Below, piece by piece: positions 42,778 to 56,080 of a stretch of DNA of 64,000 nt; position 1 is the first letter of the stretch; each line of letters opens with the position of its first letter. The DNA comes from Tenacibaculum maritimum NCIMB 2154 (GTDB lineage Bacteria; Bacteroidota; Bacteroidia; Flavobacteriales; Flavobacteriaceae). The stretch lies in NCBI RefSeq assembly GCF_900119795.1, contig NZ_LT634361.1, positions 2,356,001-2,420,000 of the forward strand, read 5' to 3'. The notes below the pieces were generated by a model. That model searched no databases. It was not told the DNA's origin and saw only the letters and a list, made by a program, of their open reading frames with translations. The position numbers and the translations under genes are program-made.

Positions 42778-43016
42778 ACTTGTACAAACTTTTACCCCAA
42801 TTTCTTGTACAAACTTTTTTACCCACTTCAAAAAACTTGTACAAAATTTTACCCCAATTTCTTGTACAAACTTTTTTACTCACTTCAAAAAACTTGTACA
42901 AACTTTTACCCCAATTTCTTGTACAAACTTTTTTACCCACTTCAAAAAACTTGTACAAACTTTTACCCCAATTTCTTGTACAAACTTTTTTACTCACTTC
43001 AAAAAACTTGTACAAA
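42778..43016. repeat. 57-bp tandem repeat with paired TTGTACAA palindromes
   Basis: Four full 57-bp units start at 42778, 42835, 42892 and 42949, with a partial fifth at 43006. Each unit contains the 8-bp palindrome TTGTACAA twice, 25 bp apart, with 32 bp to the next unit, so the array carries nine palindromes. Units 1 and 3 read ACCC where units 2 and 4 read ACTC, giving a 114-bp higher-order repeat. Because 57 is a multiple of 3, several frames stay open through the array on both strands, producing 19-residue repeat peptides that look artefactual. The 698-bp gap from 42509 to 43206 otherwise holds a terminator at 42576 and the rdgB promoter at 43177. Confidence 0.92.
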
Positions 43017-45732: not shown

Positions 45733-46764
45733 ATGAAAAAAATACTTTATATAGCTAGTGCTTTGGCTTTTGTGGCTTGTGGATCAAGTAAAGAAGTGTT
45801 AAACGAAACTCCTAAAGATACGGATTATGCTAAAAAATATGCTGAAACGATCACTGCTAAAGATTTAGGCAAACATTTATTTGTATATGCTTCTGATGAA
45901 TTTGAAGGTAGAGATACTGGATCGCCTGGACAAAAAAAAGCCGTTGCTTACTTGAAAGATTTTTATAGTAGCCAAGAAATTCCTTCTCCTTTAGGAAAAA
46001 ACACCTATTTTCAAAAAGTTCCTGCTGCTTTTTTAAGCAATAACCAACGCGGAATTCCTTTAAAAGATTCTGAAAATGTAATTGCTTATATTAAAGGAAG
46101 TGAAAAACCAAATGAAGTAATTATCATTTCTGCTCATTTAGATCATGAAGGTATTAAAGATGGAAAAATTTATAACGGTGCTGATGATGATGGCTCTGGA
46201 ACAGTAGCTATTTTAGAAATTGCGCAAGCTTTTAAACAGGCCGCCAAAGCAGGAAAAAGACCTAAACGTTCTGTTGTTTTCTTACATGTTACTGGAGAGG
46301 AAAAAGGATTGCTAGGGTCTAAATACTATACAGAAAATCCTATTTTTCCTTTGGCCAATACAGTAGCTAACTTAAATATTGATATGGTAGGAAGGGTAGA
46401 TGAACTTCATAAAGAGACGCCTAACTATGTGTATTTAATTGGTTCGGATAAGTTAAGTACAACGCTACACAATATTTCTGAAGAAATGAACAAAAAGTAT
46501 ATGCATATTAACTTAGATTATACTTATAATGATGAAAATGATCCTAATCGTTTTTATTACCGTTCTGATCATTATAATTTTGCGAAACACAACATTCCTA
46601 TCATTTTTTATTTTAATGGAGTTCACGAAGACTATCACCAACCGTCTGACACTCCTGATAAAATTGATTATGATTTATTAGAAAATAGAACTCGCTTAGT
46701 TTTTTATACTGCTTGGGAACTCGCTAATAGAAATGAGCGTATCATAGCTGATAAAGTGAAATAA
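45733..46764 (+). CDS. M28-family zinc aminopeptidase lipoprotein
   Basis: The 343-residue lipoprotein (lipobox FVAC) carries an intact M28 site: HLDHEG (zinc His/Asp side), YNGADDDGSG (bridging Asp), HVTGEEKGLLGS (base Glu and zinc Glu), NIDMVGR (Asp) and EDYHQPSDTPDKIDYD (final His). An EGRDTGSPGQ segment near residue 60 is also typical. It removes N-terminal residues from peptides in the periplasm or outside the cell. The next gene is a degraded duplicate of it. Confidence 0.95.
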   Translation: MKKILYIASALAFVACGSSKEVLNETPKDTDYAKKYAETITAKDLGKHLFVYASDEFEGRDTGSPGQKKAVAYLKDFYSSQEIPSPLGKNTYFQKVPAAFLSNNQRGIPLKDSENVIAYIKGSEKPNEVIIISAHLDHEGIKDGKIYNGADDDGSGTVAILEIAQAFKQAAKAGKRPKRSVVFLHVTGEEKGLLGSKYYTENPIFPLANTVANLNIDMVGRVDELHKETPNYVYLIGSDKLSTTLHNISEEMNKKYMHINLDYTYNDENDPNRFYYRSDHYNFAKHNIPIIFYFNGVHEDYHQPSDTPDKIDYDLLENRTRLVFYTAWELANRNERIIADKVK

Positions 46765-46793
46765 AACGACATACTACGAACTTTTTAAATAAG

Positions 46794-46825
46794 AACCTCG
46801 CCATATTGCGAGGTTTTTCTTTTTG
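46794..46825 (+). terminator. Terminator after M28 peptidase gene
   Basis: AACCTCGC/GCGAGGTT arms (46794-46801, 46808-46815), a 6-nt loop and a T tract, 30 bp past the stop. Confidence 0.88.
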
Positions 46826-46951
46826 TCATATCTTTATTTTCTAAATTAATCTTATAAAAAAATGTCCTCTTCAAAAAAAATTCCCTTCACATTCCTTTCC
46901 AAATTATCCTTTTCCTTACTAATGGATACATCAGAAAAAACAGCTTTTCTA

Positions 46952-48625
46952 ATGAAAAAAAACATCTATATAGCCAGTGCATTACTACTTGCGGCTTGCG
47001 GCACTAATAAAGATACCTTAACTTATACACTAACCAACTCAGATGGTGCTAAAAAATATGCCGAAACTATTACTGCAAAAGAACTAAAAACAAATTTGTT
47101 AGCATATCATGCTGATGGTATTAAGCAAAAGAAAAGCATTGCTTTTTTAAAAAATAATTATACAAAGCAAGGAGTTACTGCTCCTTTAAGCAATAGTAAT
47201 TATCTTCAAAGAGTTAGTCGCCAACGCAAAGAGCAACCGCAAGATGCTAAAAATGTAATTGCTTACATTAAAGGAAGTGAAAAACCCAATGAAACAATTC
47301 TGATTTCTACACATTTAAATCATGGCAACTCCAAAGAAGTTGATGCCGATCATTCGGGTACTGCTTCTCTTTTAGAAATTGCAAAAGCATTTAAAAAAGC
47401 GGAGAGAGCAGGGATACGCCCTAAAAGATCCATTGCTTTTTTACACCTTACGGGAAGTGAAAAAGGAACACTTGGTTCTGAATATTATATTAAAAATCCT
47501 GTTTTCCCTCTCCAAAGCATTGTGGCTAATTTAGATATTGATATGATTGGTAGTGTTGATGCTTACCATAAAAACAATCCTAATTATGTATATGTAACGG
47601 GTTCTGACAGGTTAAGTACTGAATTGCACCGTATTTCTGAAATGATTAATAAGAAGTTTACCAACATTCAATTAGATTATTCGTACAGTCATCAATATGA
47701 TACAGATAGTTTTTATGCCCAATCACATCATGCAAATTTTGTTAAACATAAAATACCTGTTATTTCTTACTTTAATGGTACTGAAGAAACAACGCGTACT
47801 CCTATTAATTATGACTTGCTAAAAAATAGAACTCGTTTAATTTTTTATACTGCTTGGGAGTTGGCTAACAAAGCCAATCGCCTTATTATTGACAATGCTG
47901 TTTATAACCAAGCTTACCAAGAAAATTACCAAAGAGATGGCATTATAGACATCATTAACAAGGCTCGTAATTCTTATGTGTTAGTAGATCCTTTTCAAAA
48001 AAATGTAGCTGCTTCTGTTGCTGCTATCAAAGCGAGAGGAAACGAAGTAGGTGCTTATATAAATATTGGCGCTGGAGAAACGTATAGAGATGATTTTAAC
48101 GCTATGAAACCTTTTTTAGTGAAAAAAGTTTGGAGCGAATGGGATGGTGAGTATTTTGTAAATACCACTACTACAGGTATTGTTGATTTAATGAAAGCGC
48201 GTATAGATAAAGTTGCTGCTTGGGGGTGTGACTGGGTAGAGTTTGATAATATGGATTGGTTTTATGATGATGAATCAAGAGCTACTTATGGCTTTAAAGT
48301 TACTAAAGAAGAAGGGGTGGCTTACTACCAAGAGCTTTGTGACTATGTACATGAAAAAGGCATGAAGTGCATGGCTAAAAATACTGTTGAAAATGCTTCT
48401 AATTTTGATGGTGTGCTTTATGAATCTTATAAAAAGAATATGAATTGGTGGGATGAAGCTGGAACGCAACGCTTTTTAGATGCGGGTAAGGTAGTTATCA
48501 TCAATCATTACAACGAAAAAAAATGTGAAAATGCCTATTTAAAATATAAAAGCATCTATAAAGGGAATATTTCTTTTATTTGTGAAGATGCGAAACTAGA
48601 AAAATACGTGCACTTTAATAAATAA
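46952..48625 (+). CDS. Fusion of degenerate M28 domain and GH114 endo-polygalactosaminidase domain, lipoprotein
   Basis: The 557-residue lipoprotein (lipobox LAAC) has two parts. Residues about 20-325 clearly descend from the neighbouring M28 peptidase (KKYAETITAKEL, AYIKGSEKPNE, GSEYYIKNPVFPL) but lack the catalytic set: HLDH is HLNH, GADDDGSG is DADHSG, TGEEKG is TGSEKG and the YHQPSDT His is gone. Residues about 335-557 form a GH114-like domain (LVDPFQKNVAASVAAI, YINIGAGETYRDD, WGCDWVEFDNMDWF, CMAKNTVENA), the family of endo-alpha-1,4-polygalactosaminidases. The hydrolase may now act on an exopolysaccharide, with the dead peptidase as a binding scaffold. ATG 46952 gives the lipobox; the open frame extends to 46862. 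Confidence 0.85.
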   Translation: MKKNIYIASALLLAACGTNKDTLTYTLTNSDGAKKYAETITAKELKTNLLAYHADGIKQKKSIAFLKNNYTKQGVTAPLSNSNYLQRVSRQRKEQPQDAKNVIAYIKGSEKPNETILISTHLNHGNSKEVDADHSGTASLLEIAKAFKKAERAGIRPKRSIAFLHLTGSEKGTLGSEYYIKNPVFPLQSIVANLDIDMIGSVDAYHKNNPNYVYVTGSDRLSTELHRISEMINKKFTNIQLDYSYSHQYDTDSFYAQSHHANFVKHKIPVISYFNGTEETTRTPINYDLLKNRTRLIFYTAWELANKANRLIIDNAVYNQAYQENYQRDGIIDIINKARNSYVLVDPFQKNVAASVAAIKARGNEVGAYINIGAGETYRDDFNAMKPFLVKKVWSEWDGEYFVNTTTTGIVDLMKARIDKVAAWGCDWVEFDNMDWFYDDESRATYGFKVTKEEGVAYYQELCDYVHEKGMKCMAKNTVENASNFDGVLYESYKKNMNWWDEAGTQRFLDAGKVVIINHYNEKKCENAYLKYKSIYKGNISFICEDAKLEKYVHFNK

Positions 48626-48760: not shown

Positions 48761-49483
48761 CTACCATCCTCCAACACGTTCTCGTTCTGTTTGTTGCGCT
48801 GGTGTTGCTTCTGGTGTAGGAATATTACTACCATATAATGGTTTGGGAAAACCTAGTTTTTTTCTACGCTCAAAATCTCGCTCTCGATACGCATCAAAAG
48901 CCGTACCTGGAGGTAAAGGACGATTTTTATCCATATACCATACATAAAAACTCCAATCTTTATAAGGTTCACTTCCATAAAAAGTATATAACAATGTAAA
49001 CCTTCTAGGATTAAACGTATTTACAAATTTTAAGTATTCACTATCTACATAATCATCAACACCTCCTGTTACTGTAATGACTGCATGCAGCTCTTTAAAC
49101 CTTCCTTTTAAAGGCTTTCGAAAATAACTATCAGGATAGGTTACCATACCTGTCAATCTATTTAACTCAAATATTTTATAGTTTTTATTCGCATACAATC
49201 CGTAAATCATCCAAAACAAACCGCCTAATATTAAAAGGATAAACAGCAGGATATAATATTTATCATTTTCAGGCAACTCGGTATCACCTGGCATAAACAA
49301 CCCTATAACACCAAAGGCTACAGCTCCAATACCCCAATACAGGTTTGATGTTAAAAAAATACGGTGTGACTCAAAAAATATCTGATCATCAGCTTGTTTT
49401 AGCATCCCTTCTTCTCCTATCTTGCTAATAAAGTCTTTGTCATATACTGTAGGGTATTCTAATATTCTATGTGGTTGTTTCAT
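48761..49483 (-). CDS. Tandem two-TM membrane protein, copy 4 (candidate immunity protein)
   Basis: The 240-residue protein, last of four tandem copies, has an N-terminal cytosolic part of about 40 residues, two membrane segments (about 43-65 and 76-98) and a soluble C-terminal domain of about 135 residues ending ERERVGGW. Its N-terminal module is type A (KIGEEGMLKQADDQIFFESH) and its TM module type Y (AVAFGVIGLFMPGDTELPEN). The C-terminal domain is nearly identical to the other copies. No family is recognised. Position behind a VasX-like effector, membrane topology and multiplicity suggest an immunity protein for a pore-forming toxin, by analogy with TsiV2; this is inference. Confidence 0.75.
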   Translation of the reverse strand: MKQPHRILEYPTVYDKDFISKIGEEGMLKQADDQIFFESHRIFLTSNLYWGIGAVAFGVIGLFMPGDTELPENDKYYILLFILLILGGLFWMIYGLYANKNYKIFELNRLTGMVTYPDSYFRKPLKGRFKELHAVITVTGGVDDYVDSEYLKFVNTFNPRRFTLLYTFYGSEPYKDWSFYVWYMDKNRPLPPGTAFDAYRERDFERRKKLGFPKPLYGSNIPTPEATPAQQTERERVGGW

Positions 49484-49571
49484 TCTTAGTCAATATAATA
49501 TGCCATTTTTTATTTTACCTTCACTGTATTCTTCGTCTTATATTAGTTATTTCAAATAGCAATCCATATTA

Positions 49572-50294
49572 CTACCATCCTCCAATACGTTCTCGTTCTG
49601 CTTGTTGCGCTGGTGTTGCTTCTGGTGTAGGAATATTACTACCATATAATGGTTTGGGAAAACCTAGTTTTTTTCTACGCTCAAAATCTCGCTCTCGATA
49701 CGCATCAAAGATCTCACCTGGAGGTAAAGGACGATTTTTATCCATATACCATACATAAAAACTCCAATCTTTATAAGGTTCACTTCCATAAAAAGTATAT
49801 AACAATGTAAACCTTCTAGGATTAAACGTATTTACAAATTTTAAGTATTCACTATCTACATAATCATCAACACCTCCTGTTACTGTAATGACTGCATGCA
49901 GCTCTTTAAACCTTCCTTTTAAAGGCTTTCGAAAATAACTATCAGGGTAGGTTACCATACCTGTCAATCTATTTAACTCAAATATTTTATAGTTTTTATT
50001 CGCATACAATGCATAAAACATCCAAAACAAACCGCCTAGGATTAAAAGGATAAGCAACAGAATATAATATTTATCATTTTCAGGCAACTCGGTATCACCT
50101 GGCATAAACAACCCTATAACACCAAAGGCTACAGCTCCAATACCCCAATACAGGTTTGATGTTAATAAAAAAGCAAATGATCTAAAAAAAACCTTATCAT
50201 CAGCATGGTCTGAAAGCTCTCCGTTTTTTTCATAAACTGTAAAGTCTTTGTCATATACTGTAGGGTATTCTAATATTCTATGTGGTTGCTTCAT
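49572..50294 (-). CDS. Tandem two-TM membrane protein, copy 3 (candidate immunity protein)
   Basis: The 240-residue copy has N-module type B (DFTVYEKNGELSDHADDKVF, FFRSFAFLL) and TM-module type Y (AVAFGVIGLFMPGDTELPEN). The C-terminal domain reads PGEIFDAYR, shared with copy 2, where copies 1 and 4 read PGTAFDAYR. It is separated from copy 4 by an 88-bp spacer nearly identical to that between copies 2 and 3. Function as for copy 4. Confidence 0.75.
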   Translation of the reverse strand: MKQPHRILEYPTVYDKDFTVYEKNGELSDHADDKVFFRSFAFLLTSNLYWGIGAVAFGVIGLFMPGDTELPENDKYYILLLILLILGGLFWMFYALYANKNYKIFELNRLTGMVTYPDSYFRKPLKGRFKELHAVITVTGGVDDYVDSEYLKFVNTFNPRRFTLLYTFYGSEPYKDWSFYVWYMDKNRPLPPGEIFDAYRERDFERRKKLGFPKPLYGSNIPTPEATPAQQAERERIGGW

Positions 50295-50382
50295 TCTTAG
50301 TCAATATAATATGCCATTTTTTATTTTACCTTCACTGTATTCTTCGTCTTATATTAGTTATTTCAAATAGCAATCCATATTA

Positions 50383-51084
50383 CTACCATCCTCCAATACG
50401 TTCTCGTTCTGCTTGTTGCGCTGGTGTTGCTTCTGGTGTAGGAATATTACTACCATATAATGGTTTGGGAAAACCTAGTTTTTTTCTACGCTCAAAATCT
50501 CGCTCTCGATACGCATCAAAGATCTCACCTGGAGGTAAAGGACGATTTTTATCCATATACCATACATAAAAACTCCAATCTTTATAAGGTTCACTTCCAT
50601 AAAAAGTATATAACAATGTAAACCTTCTAGGATTAAACGTATTTACAAATTTTAAGTATTCACTATCTACATAATCATCAACACCTCCTGTTACTGTAAT
50701 GACTGCATGCAGCTCTTTAAACCTTCCTTTTAAAGGCTTTCGAAAATAACTATCAGGGTAGGTTACCATACCTGTCAATCTATTTAACTCAAATATTTTA
50801 TAATTTTTATTTGCATACAATCCGTAAAACATCCAAAACAAGCCGCCTAATATTAAAAGGATAGGTAAAATTCTTTGCTGGTTATTTTCTGTTGAAGCTA
50901 TCAACCATACACCAACTACAATACCTCCAATACCCCAATACAGGTTTGATGTTAATAAAAAAGCAAATGATCTAAAAAAAAACTTATCATCAGCATAATT
51001 TAAGAATTTTCCTTTTTTTTCACAAACTATAAAGTCTTTGTCATATACTGTAGGGTATTCTAATATTCTATGTGGTTGTTTCAT
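50383..51084 (-). CDS. Tandem two-TM membrane protein, copy 2 (candidate immunity protein)
   Basis: The 233-residue copy combines N-module type B (VCEKKGKFLNYADDKFFFRS) with TM-module type X (GGIVVGVWLIASTENNQQR), which is 7 residues shorter than type Y. The C-terminal domain is almost identical to copy 3. The spacer to copy 1 is 43 bp, a shortened form of the 88-bp spacers. Confidence 0.75.
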   Translation of the reverse strand: MKQPHRILEYPTVYDKDFIVCEKKGKFLNYADDKFFFRSFAFLLTSNLYWGIGGIVVGVWLIASTENNQQRILPILLILGGLFWMFYGLYANKNYKIFELNRLTGMVTYPDSYFRKPLKGRFKELHAVITVTGGVDDYVDSEYLKFVNTFNPRRFTLLYTFYGSEPYKDWSFYVWYMDKNRPLPPGEIFDAYRERDFERRKKLGFPKPLYGSNIPTPEATPAQQAERERIGGW

Positions 51085-51127
51085 TCTTAGTCAATATAAT
51101 AGTTATTTCAAATAGCAATCCATATTA

Positions 51128-51829
51128 CTACCATCCTCCAATACGTTCTCGTTCTGCTTGTTGCGCTGGTGTTGCTTCTGGTGTAGGAATATTACTACCA
51201 TATAATGGTTTGGGAAAACCTAGTTTTTTTCTACGCTCAAAATCTCGCTCTCGATACGCATCAAAAGCCGTACCTGGAGGTAAAGGACGATTTTTATCCA
51301 TATACCATACATAAAAACTCCAATCTTTATAAGGTTCACTTCCATAAAAAGTATATAGCAATGTAAACCTTCTAGGATTAAACGTATTTACAAATTTTAA
51401 GTATTCACTATCTACATAACCATCAATATTTCCTGTTACTGTAATGACTGCATGCAGCTCTTTAAACCTTCCTTTTAAAGGCTTTCGAAAATAACTATCA
51501 GGATAGGTTACCATACCTGTCAATCTATTTAACTCAAATATTTTATAGTTTTTATTTGCATACAATCCGTAAATCATCCAAAACAAACCGCCTAATATTA
51601 AAAGGATAGGTAAAATTCTTTGCTGGTTATTTTCTGTTGAAGCTATCAACCATACACCAACTACAATACCCCCAATACCCCAATACAGGTTTGATGTTAA
51701 AAAAATACGGTGTGACTCAAAAAATATCTGATCATCAGCTTGTTTTAGCATCCCTTCTTCTCCTATCTTGCTAATAAAGTCTTTGTCATATACTGTAGGG
51801 TATTCTAATATTCTATGTGGTTGTTTCAT
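51128..51829 (-). CDS. Tandem two-TM membrane protein, copy 1 (candidate immunity protein)
   Basis: The 233-residue copy closest to the effector combines N-module type A (KIGEEGMLKQADDQIFFESH, as in copy 4) with TM-module type X (as in copy 2). It differs from the others by GNIDGYVDSEY in place of GGVDDYVDSEY. Its ATG is 2 bp from the stop of the 1118-residue protein, so effector and first copy are translationally linked, as expected of a toxin-immunity pair. Confidence 0.78.
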   Translation of the reverse strand: MKQPHRILEYPTVYDKDFISKIGEEGMLKQADDQIFFESHRIFLTSNLYWGIGGIVVGVWLIASTENNQQRILPILLILGGLFWMIYGLYANKNYKIFELNRLTGMVTYPDSYFRKPLKGRFKELHAVITVTGNIDGYVDSEYLKFVNTFNPRRFTLLYTFYGSEPYKDWSFYVWYMDKNRPLPPGTAFDAYRERDFERRKKLGFPKPLYGSNIPTPEATPAQQAERERIGGW

Positions 51830-51831
51830 TG

Positions 51832-54800
51832 TTAATTGATATAATAAGATTGTAATTTTGATATACTTTTTTCTGAAATAATTTTAGGTTTTCGCAAAGC
51901 TTCCTCTTTTGGCATGTTTACTAATTTTACATTTGTAACACCAATTCTTTGCCCATACCTATGAGCAGAAAAAACACTTTGCATTAAATTCGTATTGGTA
52001 TTTATTTTATTATGGGTTTGAGCATGCCCAAAAATATAGCGAGGTTCCGTATGAAAGCTTGTAGGAATATACTCTCCATCTGCTACCTTAATTCTACATA
52101 TAAATAACACTTCTCCTTTAGGATATTCTTCAAGATTGAATATAAAATCATTAGGCAAACCAAAACTTATTTGGCAATTAGGGGTTAGCTCCTCATTATT
52201 AAAATAATTCTTTTGAGGTGCTTCATATATAAATGTTGTTATAGCTATACGCCCGTTCGGACGCAATGCTGCTTTTGTATTTATGCCATAAGGATAGTAC
52301 CAAGCTTTTATAGCTAACTGATCTAAATCATTAATTTTTTGTGCAGAATAAATGGATGCTTTAAAACGATGGGTAATGGCATTATATTTATAAAATCCCT
52401 TGTGATAATCTATATATTCATGAGATGCTGGCTCTACAATGACAATACTTGGTACTAAAATATCTAAAAGAGCAGTATAGGCTTTTTCAAAGTTAGTATA
52501 AGTTTTAAACTCATCGGATTGCACAGAGCCAAACCAAGGATTGTTCATGGTTTTAGCAGGATTAACAACCAAACGTGATATGTACTCTTGTGACGTTTCA
52601 TGTGCACTAGGTATTGCGGCAAAATCACTTAAAGGGTAGTTTTTAAAATAAGCTTCTAGTTCCGAATCTTTAAAATACTTAGCTGCCAAATAATAACACC
52701 CTACCAAAGCACCTCCTAATAAGGCAGCAGGCCAAAACCCTAAGCCAAATACCGCTGCACTACCACTAACGAGCATGCTTATATCTGCAAATAAAAAAGT
52801 AGCTCCAATGCCCGATGCCATTGCATAAATAGTAGCTGCATCATTGTCACGCAATGAAAAACTTAAATAACTGTCTCTTGACGCGGTAAATACAGTAATC
52901 GCAGAACTAATTATTTTAAGAGCACCTACATTTCGTGTAAAATTTCTCACCCTTCCCAAAACAACATCACTACCTAGCCCTCTTTTAATCAAATATTTAT
53001 CATATAATTTCATTTCTTTAATAAGCGTTCCTGTTGCCGCTCCTAGCTTTACACTAGCAAAAGCGAACTCTTCTTGCTTCTTATAAGATAAATCTTTAGA
53101 AAGATTTTTCACTGCTTTTCCCCATACATAAGCTTCTATCATCAATACTACCCCAGCAAAAGCATTCGATTTCAGAAATTTTTCAACTTCACTTTTAAAC
53201 CGTTTAGGCAGGTTGCCTTTCAAGTTTACTTCCAGCTTACCATCTTTTACCAATTGGTCAGCATTTTTCCTAGTCATTTTTTCATACTCCAAATGCCAAT
53301 GTTGTTTATATTTTTTCAGAGTGGCAGGTTTCCCGTTTATTTCATACGTTAGTTTTTTTCCGTTTATTTCTGTTTCAAAATTTTCTAAGGCTTTAAATTT
53401 AAAGACCGCTTTCCTCGTTTTTTTATCTCTAAAATAACTCACCTTACCCGTTATAGGCATTTCTTTTTGCTTTAATACGGTAAAAGCTCCTACATAGGTT
53501 TCATGATTGGCATAAGCTTTAAATATTTTTTCTATTTGCTTAATTGTCTTTTTAGTTAAACTAAGCTTATTAATATCTTGTATGTCAATTGAAATATCCA
53601 ATATTTTAGTACTTTTCTTAAAATATTCTGGATTTTTGTTATATAATGTTTCATTTATTTTTTTGTACCATTCGTCATGTACAAGTTGGTATTCCTTGTT
53701 TAAATCTAAATGCCTATCGTACATGTTTGGGTATTGCCCCAAAACAATAAAATGTTCTGCTACCAAACCTTTCGCGTCTTCAATATCATCTGCAATACCG
53801 CTAAAACAGTACTCTAAAGCATCCTGATAATAGTCTGATTTCATAAAGTTTCCTAAATCATCTCTATAGCTATTAATCACACTCTTTTGAGCTAGTCGTT
53901 CTTTCTTTCCTAATATCTTCTCTAGTTTTTTCTTGCTTGCTCCCCCGTGTTCTATAAAGGCACCCAAAATTCCTGCTGTATATACATTAGCAACTTTATC
54001 TTTTGTAGTATTGATTGTTTTTTCACCATACTTATCGGTATTCTCATGAGTATTGTACACAAAATCATACGAAAGTTGCGCCAAACGAAATAAATATAGT
54101 ATTTGCTTTGTTGTTTTATTGTCATCAATCGTAACTTTTTTTCCTTGCAGTAACAATTTAAATACCTCCTTTAAAGATTTACCTGTTTGTAAACTCGTTA
54201 TTATGGCTTGCAACCGTATAATTTCTCTATCAATACCTAAACAAATTTCATCTGCTAAGGTTGTAGGATCATGAAAAGTAATAAACATATCTTCCAATGT
54301 TTCATTAGCTTCGCCATTTTTTTTAGCTTTCTGATCTTGCGCTCTTTCAGTAATAAAAATGTCATTTAAATTATCTTGTAATATACTAGCAAAAGGATGT
54401 CTGTTAGGAAAAGTGGCTTTTACTTGATGAAAAGGCAATAGCATTGCGTTTTCTTCTGCTTGGTATTCCTTTGAAAAACCATTGCATTCAATAAGCTGCA
54501 TTCTTTCCTTTTTTTCATTACTAGCATTTATTTCATTAAAATATTTTCGTGACCATTGTACAGGTGAAAAAGCGACTCTTAGTTTCTTCCCTTTTTCTAC
54601 CATTTTATAACTTATTTTTTCACTTTGCTTTTTCCTTATATCTAAATATTCCCCTGTTTTTTTATCTTTAGAATACTCCCATAAAATATGAGATAACATA
54701 CCGCATTTATCTACTGCTAATTCATAATACTCCTCTGGGTCTTCATCATTTATTAAGTAAATATATCCTTCACACAATGCCGTTCGTGTAAGGCTAAAGT

Positions 54801-55188
54801 TTTTTAATTGAGGAAGTCCATATTCCTTAAATTTTTCTTTTTTATATACAACTTCCTCCAACGCTATCGTTTGCTTAACTTCTTTTGTATCCTTATTATA
54901 AACAATAACATCTTCTGTTGCTTTATTCAATAAAAGTATTTCGGCAGTATCTTCCTTTGCTATGACTGCTTTTTCTACTTCTACGTCTATTTCATCTTCT
55001 ACTGGCGTTGCTTTATCTAATAAACCATATCTAAAAAAATGCAACCGAATACCTTCTCCTTCAACTGTTATTTTAGGAGATTCATGACAAATAACCTCTT
55101 CTTGATTACAGGTAAACGAGTATTCAGCAATTTTTAAATCTTTTTCATATGATTTTCTTTGTAACTTTTCAAGCTTTTTGTTTCCCAT
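51832..55188 (-). CDS. VasX-like putative T6SS pore-forming effector
   Basis: The 1118-residue protein has no signal peptide. Its N-terminal region resembles the VasX N-domain, notably LTRTALCEGYIYLIND near residue 128 followed by YYELAVDKCGMLSHI. The middle is alpha-helical and charged. A hydrophobic cluster lies in the last third: about 674-689 (VVLMIEAYVWGKAV), 754-768 (LKIISSAITVFTA) and 780-832 (AMASGIGATFLFADISMLV, GLGFWPAALLGGALVGCYYL), like colicin-type pore formers. A beta-rich C-terminal domain of about 285 residues follows. The PAAR gene upstream and repeated membrane proteins downstream agree with a T6SS effector. The VasX assignment is by pattern and could be wrong; the hydrophobic cluster and context are firm. 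Confidence 0.7.
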   Translation of the reverse strand: MGNKKLEKLQRKSYEKDLKIAEYSFTCNQEEVICHESPKITVEGEGIRLHFFRYGLLDKATPVEDEIDVEVEKAVIAKEDTAEILLLNKATEDVIVYNKDTKEVKQTIALEEVVYKKEKFKEYGLPQLKNFSLTRTALCEGYIYLINDEDPEEYYELAVDKCGMLSHILWEYSKDKKTGEYLDIRKKQSEKISYKMVEKGKKLRVAFSPVQWSRKYFNEINASNEKKERMQLIECNGFSKEYQAEENAMLLPFHQVKATFPNRHPFASILQDNLNDIFITERAQDQKAKKNGEANETLEDMFITFHDPTTLADEICLGIDREIIRLQAIITSLQTGKSLKEVFKLLLQGKKVTIDDNKTTKQILYLFRLAQLSYDFVYNTHENTDKYGEKTINTTKDKVANVYTAGILGAFIEHGGASKKKLEKILGKKERLAQKSVINSYRDDLGNFMKSDYYQDALEYCFSGIADDIEDAKGLVAEHFIVLGQYPNMYDRHLDLNKEYQLVHDEWYKKINETLYNKNPEYFKKSTKILDISIDIQDINKLSLTKKTIKQIEKIFKAYANHETYVGAFTVLKQKEMPITGKVSYFRDKKTRKAVFKFKALENFETEINGKKLTYEINGKPATLKKYKQHWHLEYEKMTRKNADQLVKDGKLEVNLKGNLPKRFKSEVEKFLKSNAFAGVVLMIEAYVWGKAVKNLSKDLSYKKQEEFAFASVKLGAATGTLIKEMKLYDKYLIKRGLGSDVVLGRVRNFTRNVGALKIISSAITVFTASRDSYLSFSLRDNDAATIYAMASGIGATFLFADISMLVSGSAAVFGLGFWPAALLGGALVGCYYLAAKYFKDSELEAYFKNYPLSDFAAIPSAHETSQEYISRLVVNPAKTMNNPWFGSVQSDEFKTYTNFEKAYTALLDILVPSIVIVEPASHEYIDYHKGFYKYNAITHRFKASIYSAQKINDLDQLAIKAWYYPYGINTKAALRPNGRIAITTFIYEAPQKNYFNNEELTPNCQISFGLPNDFIFNLEEYPKGEVLFICRIKVADGEYIPTSFHTEPRYIFGHAQTHNKINTNTNLMQSVFSAHRYGQRIGVTNVKLVNMPKEEALRKPKIISEKSISKLQSYYIN

Positions 55189-55268
55189 TTTCTTTTATAT
55201 ACTAGCTTTTTAATTTTATACATTGAATGATTTCAACTTTTTGTTTTGAAGCAAAAATTTAGGATTTT

Positions 55269-55340
55269 TTGCCCTAATCAAGTCTTTTTCGGGTAACATA
55301 GCCTTAGCTACGTTCTGATAAAAGATTAAAATTAGGGAAA
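55269..55340. other. Nested inverted repeats between PAAR and effector genes
   Basis: In the 184-bp spacer, CCCTAAT/ATTAGGG (55272-55278, 55331-55337), AGTCTTTT/AAAAGATT (one mismatch), AAC/GTT and TAGC/GCTA pair in nested order, predicting one extended interrupted hairpin. It may act as an attenuator or processing site between the two genes. Confidence 0.4.
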
Positions 55341-55372
55341 AATAAGCCCCATTTGCAGGCATCAGAAAAAAT

Positions 55373-56080
55373 TTAAATCACTTCGTTATCATCTTCTTCT
55401 ATTTCCCAAATGACATCTACCTTTTTATCATGAACTACTCCTGTTACTTCTTCTAAAACAGTGTTTACAATGTTTCTCGTTCCTTCTTCATCCATTTCTT
55501 TTTTATGACGAGATACGGTAAGTGTAACCGTTTCTCCTTCTGCAAAATTTACTGTAGATGCCCTAAGTGTTACTTTCCTTAATACTTTAGATTTTTTAAT
55601 TATCTTTTCTTCTTTTATCCACCTTAAATTATAAACCCGTTTATCTCCTTCAATATTTTCTGTTTTTTGGCGTATTTTTTTTTGATTTGCAATGGCTTTA
55701 TTAGCATTGCCTAATATTCTATTTGCAAATGTAATTTTGGGAAAAGGTATTTCTTTTATAGGCATTATTGTAGTAGGTGAAGCTCCCTTACTACCTATTA
55801 TAATATTTGAAGACCCAGAAACAACCACACCTCCATGTGCTGTCATATCTCCTACACAAGCTATTAGTTTTCAGTTAATTAATACGGTTGGATTTCCTTG
55901 TACTATAGTATCTGATGATCCTACGCAAGTACATAAGCTTCCCATAGTTGCTACTGGTTTGTCATTAAATAAAACGTTAGATTCTCCTTGAATTACTGGA
56001 CCTCCTACATGGGGTATTGTTCCGCTACACATAGGACATATATGATTACTCCCTACTATTGCCGCTGGTTTTCCTTCCAT
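55373..56080 (-). pseudogene. PAAR-domain T6SS spike protein split by an in-frame TGA
   Basis: The first 69 codons from ATG 56080 encode a PAAR-type beta-repeat domain (GKPAAIVGSNHICPMCSGTI, VATMGSLCTCVGSSDTIVQG, NPTVLIN), then TGA at 55871-55873. Without any frame change the next codons continue the expected repeat (KLIACVGDMTAHGGVVVSGS). In this family a Gly (often GGA) follows VLIN, so a single G-to-T change explains the stop. The rest (about 130 residues) is a linker and an Ig-like adaptor domain (RKVTLRASTVNFAEGETVTL) typical of PAAR proteins that carry T6SS cargo. Re-initiation at ATG 55846 could give a separate C-terminal fragment. Full length would be about 235 residues. Confidence 0.85.

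What the first reader, a model, noticed from the sequence alone, without database searches (positions are those of the whole stretch)
48761..51829. Four tandem candidate immunity genes form a complete 2x2 mosaic of swapped modules
Each copy is built from one of two N-terminal modules (A: KIGEEGMLKQADDQ; B: EK(K/N)G...ADDK) and one of two TM modules (X: IVVGVWLIASTENNQQ; Y: AVAFGVIGLFMPGDTELP). In order from the effector the copies are A-X, B-X, B-Y and A-Y, so all four combinations occur once, over a nearly constant C-terminal domain. A T/A versus E/I marker (PGTAF/PGEIF) groups copies 1 and 4 against 2 and 3. This is the signature of recombination or gene conversion among copies, and suggests the variable membrane-facing part sets specificity, possibly extending protection to several related toxins.
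Basis: partly seen in the sequence, partly recalled or inferred. Interest (0 to 1): 0.8.

Follow-up and report, generated by a model that had tools for sequence, protein, structure and literature searches.

The report
Shuffled immunity genes beside bacterial toxin
A marine bacterium carries, next to a gene for a predicted pore-forming toxin injected into rival bacteria, four copies of the probable protecting gene that have traded pieces with each other, most tellingly the piece that sits in the membrane, which may widen protection against variants of that toxin.

Summary
Four tandem, open 233-240 aa membrane-protein genes 3' of a VasX-type T6SS effector are mosaics: 65 informative 2:2 sites fall in 5 runs (0 of 100,000 shuffles as few). 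Refinements: "B" is two alleles; N-module and TA/EI marker travel together here, so the simplest event is an exchanged membrane-hairpin cassette (X/Y) on two backbones; the model puts A/B in the soluble domain.

It is not a one-off. All 18 VasX-effector loci found by one scan carry this immunity family (1-10 matches each). Of 26 recently homogenised within-array pairs, in five arrays of three genomes, 19 have a hairpin cassette far more diverged at silent sites than the C-domain. Twenty same-species sequences show 16 marker combinations.

New here: against another strain's effector, 13 of 14 differences fall in residues 695-713, the modelled tip of a helical hairpin. Likely function: a recombination-diversified repertoire against effector variants. 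Specificity is inferred; a co-variation test was inconclusive. Closest precedent: T7SS esaG/tipC recombination. New variant of a known kind.

The parts
51832..55188 (-). VasX-type T6SS effector, 1118 aa, open
   Evidence: Pfam VasX_N 52.3 bits over cut-off 27; NCBIfam BTH_I2691 family 59.8 bits, under its cut-off 150; 99% identical to a protein NCBI calls toxin VasX [Tenacibaculum maritimum]; Foldseek best hit Tke5 9r8g, E 2e-8
53050..53106 (-). Strain-variable patch of the effector, residues 695-713, at the modelled tip of a helical hairpin (H675-698/H702-725)
   Evidence: 13 of the 14 differences between the window effector and P0121; helices, pLDDT there only about 52-68
51128..51829 (-). 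Immunity copy 1 (A-X, TA), 233 aa
   Evidence: identical to P0001, listed on 11 contigs
51701..51774 (-). N-module A of copy 1
   Evidence: columns 198-271
51609..51671 (-). Hairpin cassette X of copy 1
   Evidence: columns 301-384
50383..51084 (-). Immunity copy 2 (B1-X, EI), 233 aa
   Evidence: identical to P0008, listed on 4 contigs
50956..51029 (-). N-module B1 of copy 2
50864..50926 (-). Hairpin cassette X of copy 2
49572..50294 (-). Immunity copy 3 (B2-Y, EI), 240 aa
50166..50239 (-). N-module B2 of copy 3 (12/74 nt from B1)
50053..50136 (-). Hairpin cassette Y of copy 3 (21 nt longer than X)
48761..49483 (-). Immunity copy 4 (A-Y, TA), 240 aa
49355..49428 (-). N-module A of copy 4 (identical to that of copy 1)
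49242..49325 (-). Hairpin cassette Y of copy 4
49484..49571 (-). 88-bp spacer between copies 3 and 4, same sequence as 50295-50382 between copies 2 and 3; the spacer between copies 1 and 2 is shorter (51085-51127)
   Evidence: alignment columns 48-142
55373..56080 (-). PAAR gene upstream of the effector, reading frame interrupted by an in-frame stop after codon 69

Best explanation
This is a T6SS effector-immunity locus of a Tenacibaculum (almost certainly T. maritimum). A VasX-family effector, predicted to depolarise the inner membrane from the periplasm, is followed by four tandem copies of its membrane immunity gene. The copies arose by tandem duplication; homologous recombination or gene conversion, using conserved blocks as joints (the 5' end, 29 nt before the hairpin cassette, and the C-domain), keeps the backbone uniform while moving diverged cassettes between copies. 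The main moving part is the distal half of a two-helix membrane hairpin. The likely benefit is a repertoire: one copy matches the strain's own effector, the others cover variants from other strains or species, whose effectors differ at a short helical-hairpin tip. Shown: copies, mosaic, cassette exchange, the same pattern in other arrays, the effector patch (one comparison). Inferred: immunity function, periplasmic contact at the hairpin, cassette-set specificity, repertoire benefit.
For: Mosaic. Silent divergence is about 0.40-0.66 where A meets B or X meets Y but 0-0.035 over codons 99-240, so modules were exchanged or imported rather than diverging in place. Other arrays: 19 of 26 recently homogenised pairs have hairpin pS above 0.30, in 5 of 5 arrays that contain such pairs (window, both arrays of the second locus of the same genome, L058, L059), three genomes in all; pairs within an array are not independent. 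Population: 16 distinct marker combinations among 20 sequences with all seven markers (16 database, 4 window; two window copies repeat database ones; two fragments left out), and four-gamete patterns at 18 of 21 marker pairs, with B1 and B2 pooled. Other species share the cassettes in other combinations: P0019 has a Y-like cassette (72% to c4), P0016 X-like (79% to c1), P0020 and P0021 a third cassette (78% to each other) with N-modules only 52% alike. Immunity: 18 of 18 effector loci carry the family. Effector: 13 of 14 differences from P0121 in 19 residues; three orthologue pairs also differ more often at 690-730 and 870-960 than elsewhere. L045/L047: first immunity copies 98-100% identical outside the cassette segment and 61% inside, with effectors 95% identical. 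T6SS present: TssC PF17541 E 3.6e-229, 15 TssD matches. Published: Tki5 neutralises the helical region of Tke5 (PMC12909789, passages).
Against: No experiment shows that these proteins protect. A distance-matrix test over 20 effector/first-immunity pairs gave no effector window that stands out for the hairpin cassette (partial r -0.21 to 0.22; 0.17 for 681-720). Within the species only one other effector sequence was seen; the 26 members of its 90% cluster are hidden behind it, so effector polymorphism rests on one comparison, and that pair shows 0 of 91 differences at 870-960. The enrichment at 690-730 is modest in L039/L041 (8 of 41 against 118 of 1078). The PAAR gene upstream is interrupted, so this strain may not deliver the effector through it. 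The PHI-type test was not significant for 3 of 12 arrays.
Confidence: 0.68

Rival explanations
1. Dosage or neutral by-product: extra copies only raise the amount of immunity protein (or are neutral), and recombination between tandem repeats shuffles loosely constrained parts without effect on specificity.
For: All four copies keep the same conserved C-domain; tandem repeats recombine readily (general knowledge); the one other effector sequence of the species seen is 99% identical; one search found no effector window co-varying with the cassette.
Against: Pure dosage duplicates would stay identical, yet cassettes with pS 0.40-0.66 sit on near-identical backbones; the same cassette is exchanged in five arrays; all four window ORFs are open; the effector difference seen is confined almost wholly to one short patch.
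Confidence: 0.2
2. Sequential displacement: the array is a record of past effector-immunity modules acquired horizontally, as in Vibrio cholerae, with old immunity genes left behind.
For: The second locus of the genome has effector fragments interleaved with immunity genes; cassettes are shared between species.
Against: In the window the copies are 88-94% identical with pS 0-0.035 over codons 99-240 and the two longer spacers are identical, which points to duplication within the locus; no effector fragment lies in the window array. PMC5361080 argues that its arrays are not duplications because copies of one genome do not cluster (passages).
Confidence: 0.09
3. Assembly artefact: repeats were collapsed or chimerised during assembly.
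For: The region is repetitive; PMC9484751 notes that repetitive sequence may have confounded assembly of an esaG array in one S. aureus record (Results part 1).
Against: The genome is a single contig; c1 and c2 are found letter for letter in database proteins listed on 11 and 4 contigs (some of these may be this same genome); a short contig from another dataset holds an A-Y fragment (P0053); other arrays show the same pattern. c3 and c4 could not be checked letter for letter because Y-type proteins are hidden in one 90% cluster (P0018).
Confidence: 0.03

Closest known systems
T7SS immunity arrays esaG (S. aureus) and tipC (Streptococcus), Garrett et al. 2022, PMC9484751 (abstract, Results part 1 of 3, Discussion and passages read)
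   Same: Tandem non-identical immunity paralogues behind a polymorphic toxin; conserved blocks alternate with variable blocks; recombination in the blocks makes mosaics and changes copy number; same proposed benefit
   Different: Secretion system (T7SS, Firmicutes); in that study the membrane immunity family tsaI had one conserved block and little evidence of recombination, whereas here a membrane immunity family shows repeated exchange of its hairpin cassette
V. cholerae T6SS immunity gene arrays, Kirchberger et al. 2017, PMC5361080 (passages read)
   Same: T6SS immunity arrays 3' of effectors, shaped by recombination
   Different: There the arrays are put down to horizontal displacement and not duplication; here copies look like recent duplicates with swapped cassettes
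VasX/TsiV2 (PMC3857813, passages read), Tke5/Tki5 (PMC12909789, passages read), Bte2/Bti2 (PMC12718326, passages read)
   Same: VasX-family or VasX-like T6SS effector acting on the inner membrane, with an adjacent immunity gene; the helical region is the toxic part in Tke5
   Different: The passages read speak of one adjacent immunity gene each and do not mention a tandem mosaic array
TspA/TsaI of S. aureus (as described in PMC9484751)
   Same: Membrane-depolarising toxin with clusters of polymorphic membrane immunity genes
   Different: Five predicted TM segments, variable C-terminal part, no clear recombination; here a modelled two-helix hairpin and a nearly constant C-domain

Membership tests
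VasX-family T6SS effectors (PF20249) | VasX_N domain over the curated cut-off | tested here: met
   52.3 bits against 27; 23 of 23 members of the effector alignment match at E <= 0.001
VasX-family T6SS effectors (PF20249) | Structure like solved members, with N-terminal MIX-type domain, helical middle and C-terminal beta domain | tested here: inconclusive
   Low-confidence model (pLDDT 64.3) has that order of elements; Tke5 9r8g is the only Foldseek hit at E <= 0.001 (2e-8) but TM-scores are only 0.31/0.36; the sequence profile hits Ptx2 9qpv at 3e-6 and 9r8g at 0.016
VasX-family T6SS effectors (PF20249) | Pore formation in the target inner membrane | not testable with these tools
   needs an assay
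NCBIfam BTH_I2691 family (NF041559) | Curated score cut-off of 150 bits | tested here: not met
   59.8 bits; not filed under this model
Cognate immunity genes of VasX-type effectors | Located directly 3' of the effector at independent loci | tested here: met
   18 of 18 loci carry the family; at 17 the first copy begins within about 100 bp of the effector ORF end or overlaps it; at L069 the effector ORF end was not checked
Cognate immunity genes of VasX-type effectors | Protects against the effector | not testable with these tools
   needs an assay
Pfam 8xMP (PF24838) | Curated cut-off of 30 bits | tested here: not met
   best 23.1 bits; 3 of 70 family members match at E <= 0.01
Recombining tandem immunity arrays (T7SS esaG/tipC type) | Mosaic copies with breakpoints in conserved blocks | tested here: met
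Recombining tandem immunity arrays (T7SS esaG/tipC type) | Copy number varies between strains of a species | not tested
   The genome collections used hold one genome per species; between loci there are 1-10 matches, fragments included
Bacteroidota T6SS (T6SSiii) host | TssC and TssD of the Bacteroidota type in the genome | tested here: met
   PF17541 E 3.6e-229, one match; PF17642 15 matches; the model PF05943 has 0 matches. That these Pfam models mark the Bacteroidota type is recalled

The most novel reading that the evidence does not exclude
Effector and immunity each carry an exchangeable hairpin tip: the toxin's variable helical tip (residues 695-713, perhaps with 870-960) is read by the immunity protein's membrane-hairpin cassette, and the bacterium keeps a combinatorial array of cassettes on fixed backbones so that new immunity specificities can form by recombination. 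As far as my capped searches show, it would be the first such system described for a T6SS and for a membrane immunity family.
Probability: 0.35. Interest if true: 0.78.

Novelty: new variant of a known kind. Interest (0 to 1): 0.62.

Why it matters
How immunity proteins recognise pore-forming T6SS toxins was not settled in the passages I read. Here nature has built a near-factorial set: four natural copies with shared backbones and swapped cassettes, two natural effector alleles that differ almost only in a 19-residue patch, and an orthologous pair (L045/L047) whose first immunity copies differ almost only in the hairpin. That makes the specificity question directly testable without designing any sequence, and it would extend recombination-driven immunity repertoires from T7SS arrays to a T6SS membrane family.

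Tried and rejected
Co-variation test: over 20 effector/first-immunity pairs, partial correlations between 40-residue effector windows and the hairpin cassette were all between -0.21 and 0.22, so no region stands out; the highest value for the N-module was 0.50 at 721-760 and for the C-domain 0.48 at 481-520. Inconclusive, reported as such.

PHI-type test: 12 arrays with at least four near-full copies tested. At most 5% of permutations reached the observed value in 9 (window, L037b, L040, L042, L046, L058, L063, L072, L066); not in L043 (64 of 500), L044 (206 of 500) and L037a (999 of 1000; its blocks are swapped but tree-compatible). Median identity between copies in most other arrays is only about 50-67%, so saturation and alignment error weaken those tests; I rely on recent pairs, whose thresholds (0.15, 0.30) I set after seeing the window's values. 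Two window pairs lie at N-module pS 0.30, just under that cut.

Dropped rows: L055, L056, L060, L061, L062, L065, L067, L068, L071 (taken as the same loci as L041, L039, L044, L046, L040, L048, L045, L047, L042) and L049 (a 34-residue remnant) were left out of array statistics; copies covering fewer than about 196 model positions were left out too. The protein search listed 120 of 1161 hits, so the same-species set is what that list shows.

Not in print: no paper on this mosaic was among the titles and abstract starts listed; these lists are capped (15 of 432 papers shown, 15 of 220,895) and that library lacks most subscription journals.
Full report
WHAT IS THERE. The minus strand of 48761-56080 reads PAAR gene (interrupted), a 1118-aa effector (51832-55188) and four immunity-type genes. 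The effector carries VasX_N over the Pfam cut-off and is 99% identical to a protein named toxin VasX of Tenacibaculum maritimum; I therefore take the unnamed window to be T. maritimum (inference). The genome is one contig of 3.44 Mb and encodes a Bacteroidota-type T6SS: one TssC and 15 TssD matches.

THE MOSAIC. All four copies are open. Of 65 informative 2:2 sites in the coding region (a run of gaps counted once), 34 group c1+c4 and 31 group c1+c2; they fall in 5 runs, against a mean of 33.5 in 100,000 shuffles, none as low. Module A is identical in c1 and c4; cassette X is nearly identical in c1 and c2, Y in c3 and c4; the 29 nt between modules are identical in all. The order of patterns along the gene is c1+c4, then c1+c2, then mostly c1+c4, with single-site alternation at columns 419, 436 and 490, so the simplest history has two backbones (A...TA and B...EI) with the hairpin cassette exchanged between them. 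The B class is two alleles (12/74 differ). Silent-site divergence is 0.30-0.66, depending on how the segments are cut, where A meets B or X meets Y, but 0-0.035 in the C-domain: old cassettes on a young, homogenised backbone. The spacers c2-c3 and c3-c4 are identical, as expected from tandem duplication.

WITHIN THE SPECIES. The protein search (1161 hits, 120 listed) returned P0001-P0015 and P0018, which I treat as the same species because they differ from the window copies at few columns outside the modules and ten of the sixteen have a longest contig of 3.33-3.53 Mb; this is an inference. With the window's copies, 20 sequences with all seven markers give 16 marker combinations, and 18 of 21 marker pairs show all four combinations of two alleles, B1 and B2 being pooled. 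c1 equals P0001 and c2 equals P0008, so 18 different sequences are involved. Y-type proteins are hidden in one 90% cluster, so Y combinations are under-counted.

BETWEEN SPECIES. In one search the C-domain keeps the three window copies of that alignment together (96-97%), yet cassettes cross species: Y in P0019 (72%), X in P0016 (79%) and P0023 (73%), a third cassette in P0020 and P0021 (78% to each other) with N-modules 52% alike. The family matched 8 of 194 relatives examined, own genome included, all in one genus, and 9 of 397 genomes drawn across the taxonomic family, own genome included (at most 7 candidates per genome were scored there, so copy numbers in that call are lower bounds).

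OTHER LOCI. A scan with the effector alignment gave 18 loci in Tenacibaculum, Aquimarina, Spongiivirga, Ulvibacter and others; 18 of 18 carry the immunity family, with 1 to 10 matches, fragments included. The second locus of the window's own genome holds an open effector, an N-terminal effector fragment, five immunity copies, a fragment matching residues 420-946 of the window effector, and six more copies, one of them with a broken frame. Both of its arrays show the same hairpin exchange: for example L037b copies 1 and 5 have 98% identical cassettes on N-parts 73% identical, and copies 2 and 5 the reverse, 50% and 97%. Over all arrays, 26 of 135 within-array pairs have C-domain pS under 0.15; 19 of these have hairpin pS over 0.30, covering 5 of 5 arrays with such pairs (three genomes), but only 3 have N-module pS over 0.30 (two arrays). 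The hairpin is thus the recurrent exchange unit; the N-module swap is rarer.

STRUCTURE. The immunity model (pLDDT 86.5) has two membrane-length helices, 42-64 and 68-90, joined by a short turn, and a small mixed domain made of the N-terminal strands and the C-terminal part. The X/Y differences fall at about residues 54-82, the distal half of the hairpin; Y is 7 residues longer. The hairpin holds one K/R, the C-domain 23, so by the positive-inside rule the soluble domain is cytoplasmic and the turn periplasmic (inference), the side from which VasX-type toxins are thought to insert. A/B lies in the soluble domain.

THE EFFECTOR VARIES TOO. The window effector and P0121, from another strain, differ at 14 of 1118 residues; 13 lie in 695-713, the modelled turn of helices 675-698 and 702-725 (low local confidence). 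Three orthologue pairs show more differences at 690-730 than elsewhere (L039/L041 8 of 41 against 118 of 1078; L045/L047 9 of 51 against 44 of 1088; L044/L046 16 of 43 against 98 of 1062) and at 870-960 (26 of 92 against 100 of 1027; 17 of 106 against 36 of 1033; 17 of 88 against 97 of 1017); the window/P0121 pair has none of its differences at 870-960. In the pair L045/L047 the first immunity copies are 98%, 61%, 98% and 100% identical along N-part, hairpin, middle and C-part (pS 0.14, 0.67, 0.09, 0.07). L040/L042, with effectors 99.5% identical, have almost identical first copies although the rest of their arrays differs, which suggests that copy 1 is the cognate one.

HOW IT LIKELY WORKS. 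The toxin arrives in the periplasm and inserts its helices; the immunity protein sits in the inner membrane and blocks it, probably by contact through the hairpin. Recombination in conserved blocks moves cassettes between copies and, with imported DNA, between strains and species, giving an array that covers effector variants. Published work shows that Tki5 neutralises the helical region of Tke5 (PMC12909789, passages). Against this: no assay, one effector comparison only within the species, an interrupted PAAR gene in this strain, and a co-variation test that singled out nothing.

WHAT IS KNOWN. Garrett et al. 2022 (PMC9484751; abstract, Results part 1 of 3, Discussion, passages) describe the same logic for T7SS esaG and tipC and found little evidence of it in the membrane family tsaI. 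Kirchberger et al. 2017 (PMC5361080; passages) explain V. cholerae T6SS arrays by displacement and argue against duplication. VasX-family relatives in Bacteroidota are described with adjacent immunity genes (PMC12718326; passages). I saw no report of this mosaic in the capped lists. Hence: a new variant of a known kind.

Noticed in passing
window 55373-56080: The PAAR gene upstream of the effector is interrupted by an in-frame stop after codon 69, splitting it into 69- and 157-aa frames; the matching gene is one open frame at 7 of 7 related loci where the match was seen. Delivery of this effector in this strain may be affected.
   Followed up: partly
window 45733-48625: Two adjacent genes with similar starts; the second (46862-48625) joins an M28 peptidase domain to a GH114 glycoside hydrolase domain. 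The first was not scanned; it looks like a paralogue of the peptidase part by eye.
   Followed up: no
window 42778-43016: Tandem array, 57-bp unit, 4.2 copies, 97% matches.
   Followed up: no
L037 322-2959 and L038 2-703: Tandem lipoprotein-like genes with a shared MKQYVYLI...FLTSCK-type start flank the second effector-immunity locus of the same genome.
   Followed up: no
L037 4457-15136: Second locus of the same genome: effector fragments lie among 11 immunity copies, as expected if effectors were displaced there.
   Followed up: partly
L044 15472-17085, L046 6195-7808, L048 2454-5633: PAAR proteins with long extensions (537, 537 and 1059 aa) at or near sister loci.
   Followed up: no
L042 6383-11761 and L048 8842-9819: Immunity-family proteins of about 325 aa with a C-terminal extension, a longer subtype.
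   Followed up: no
L049 10018-10119: A lone 34-residue remnant of the conserved immunity C-terminus in another genome of the same genus, beside genes that also neighbour full arrays in sister species.
   Followed up: no
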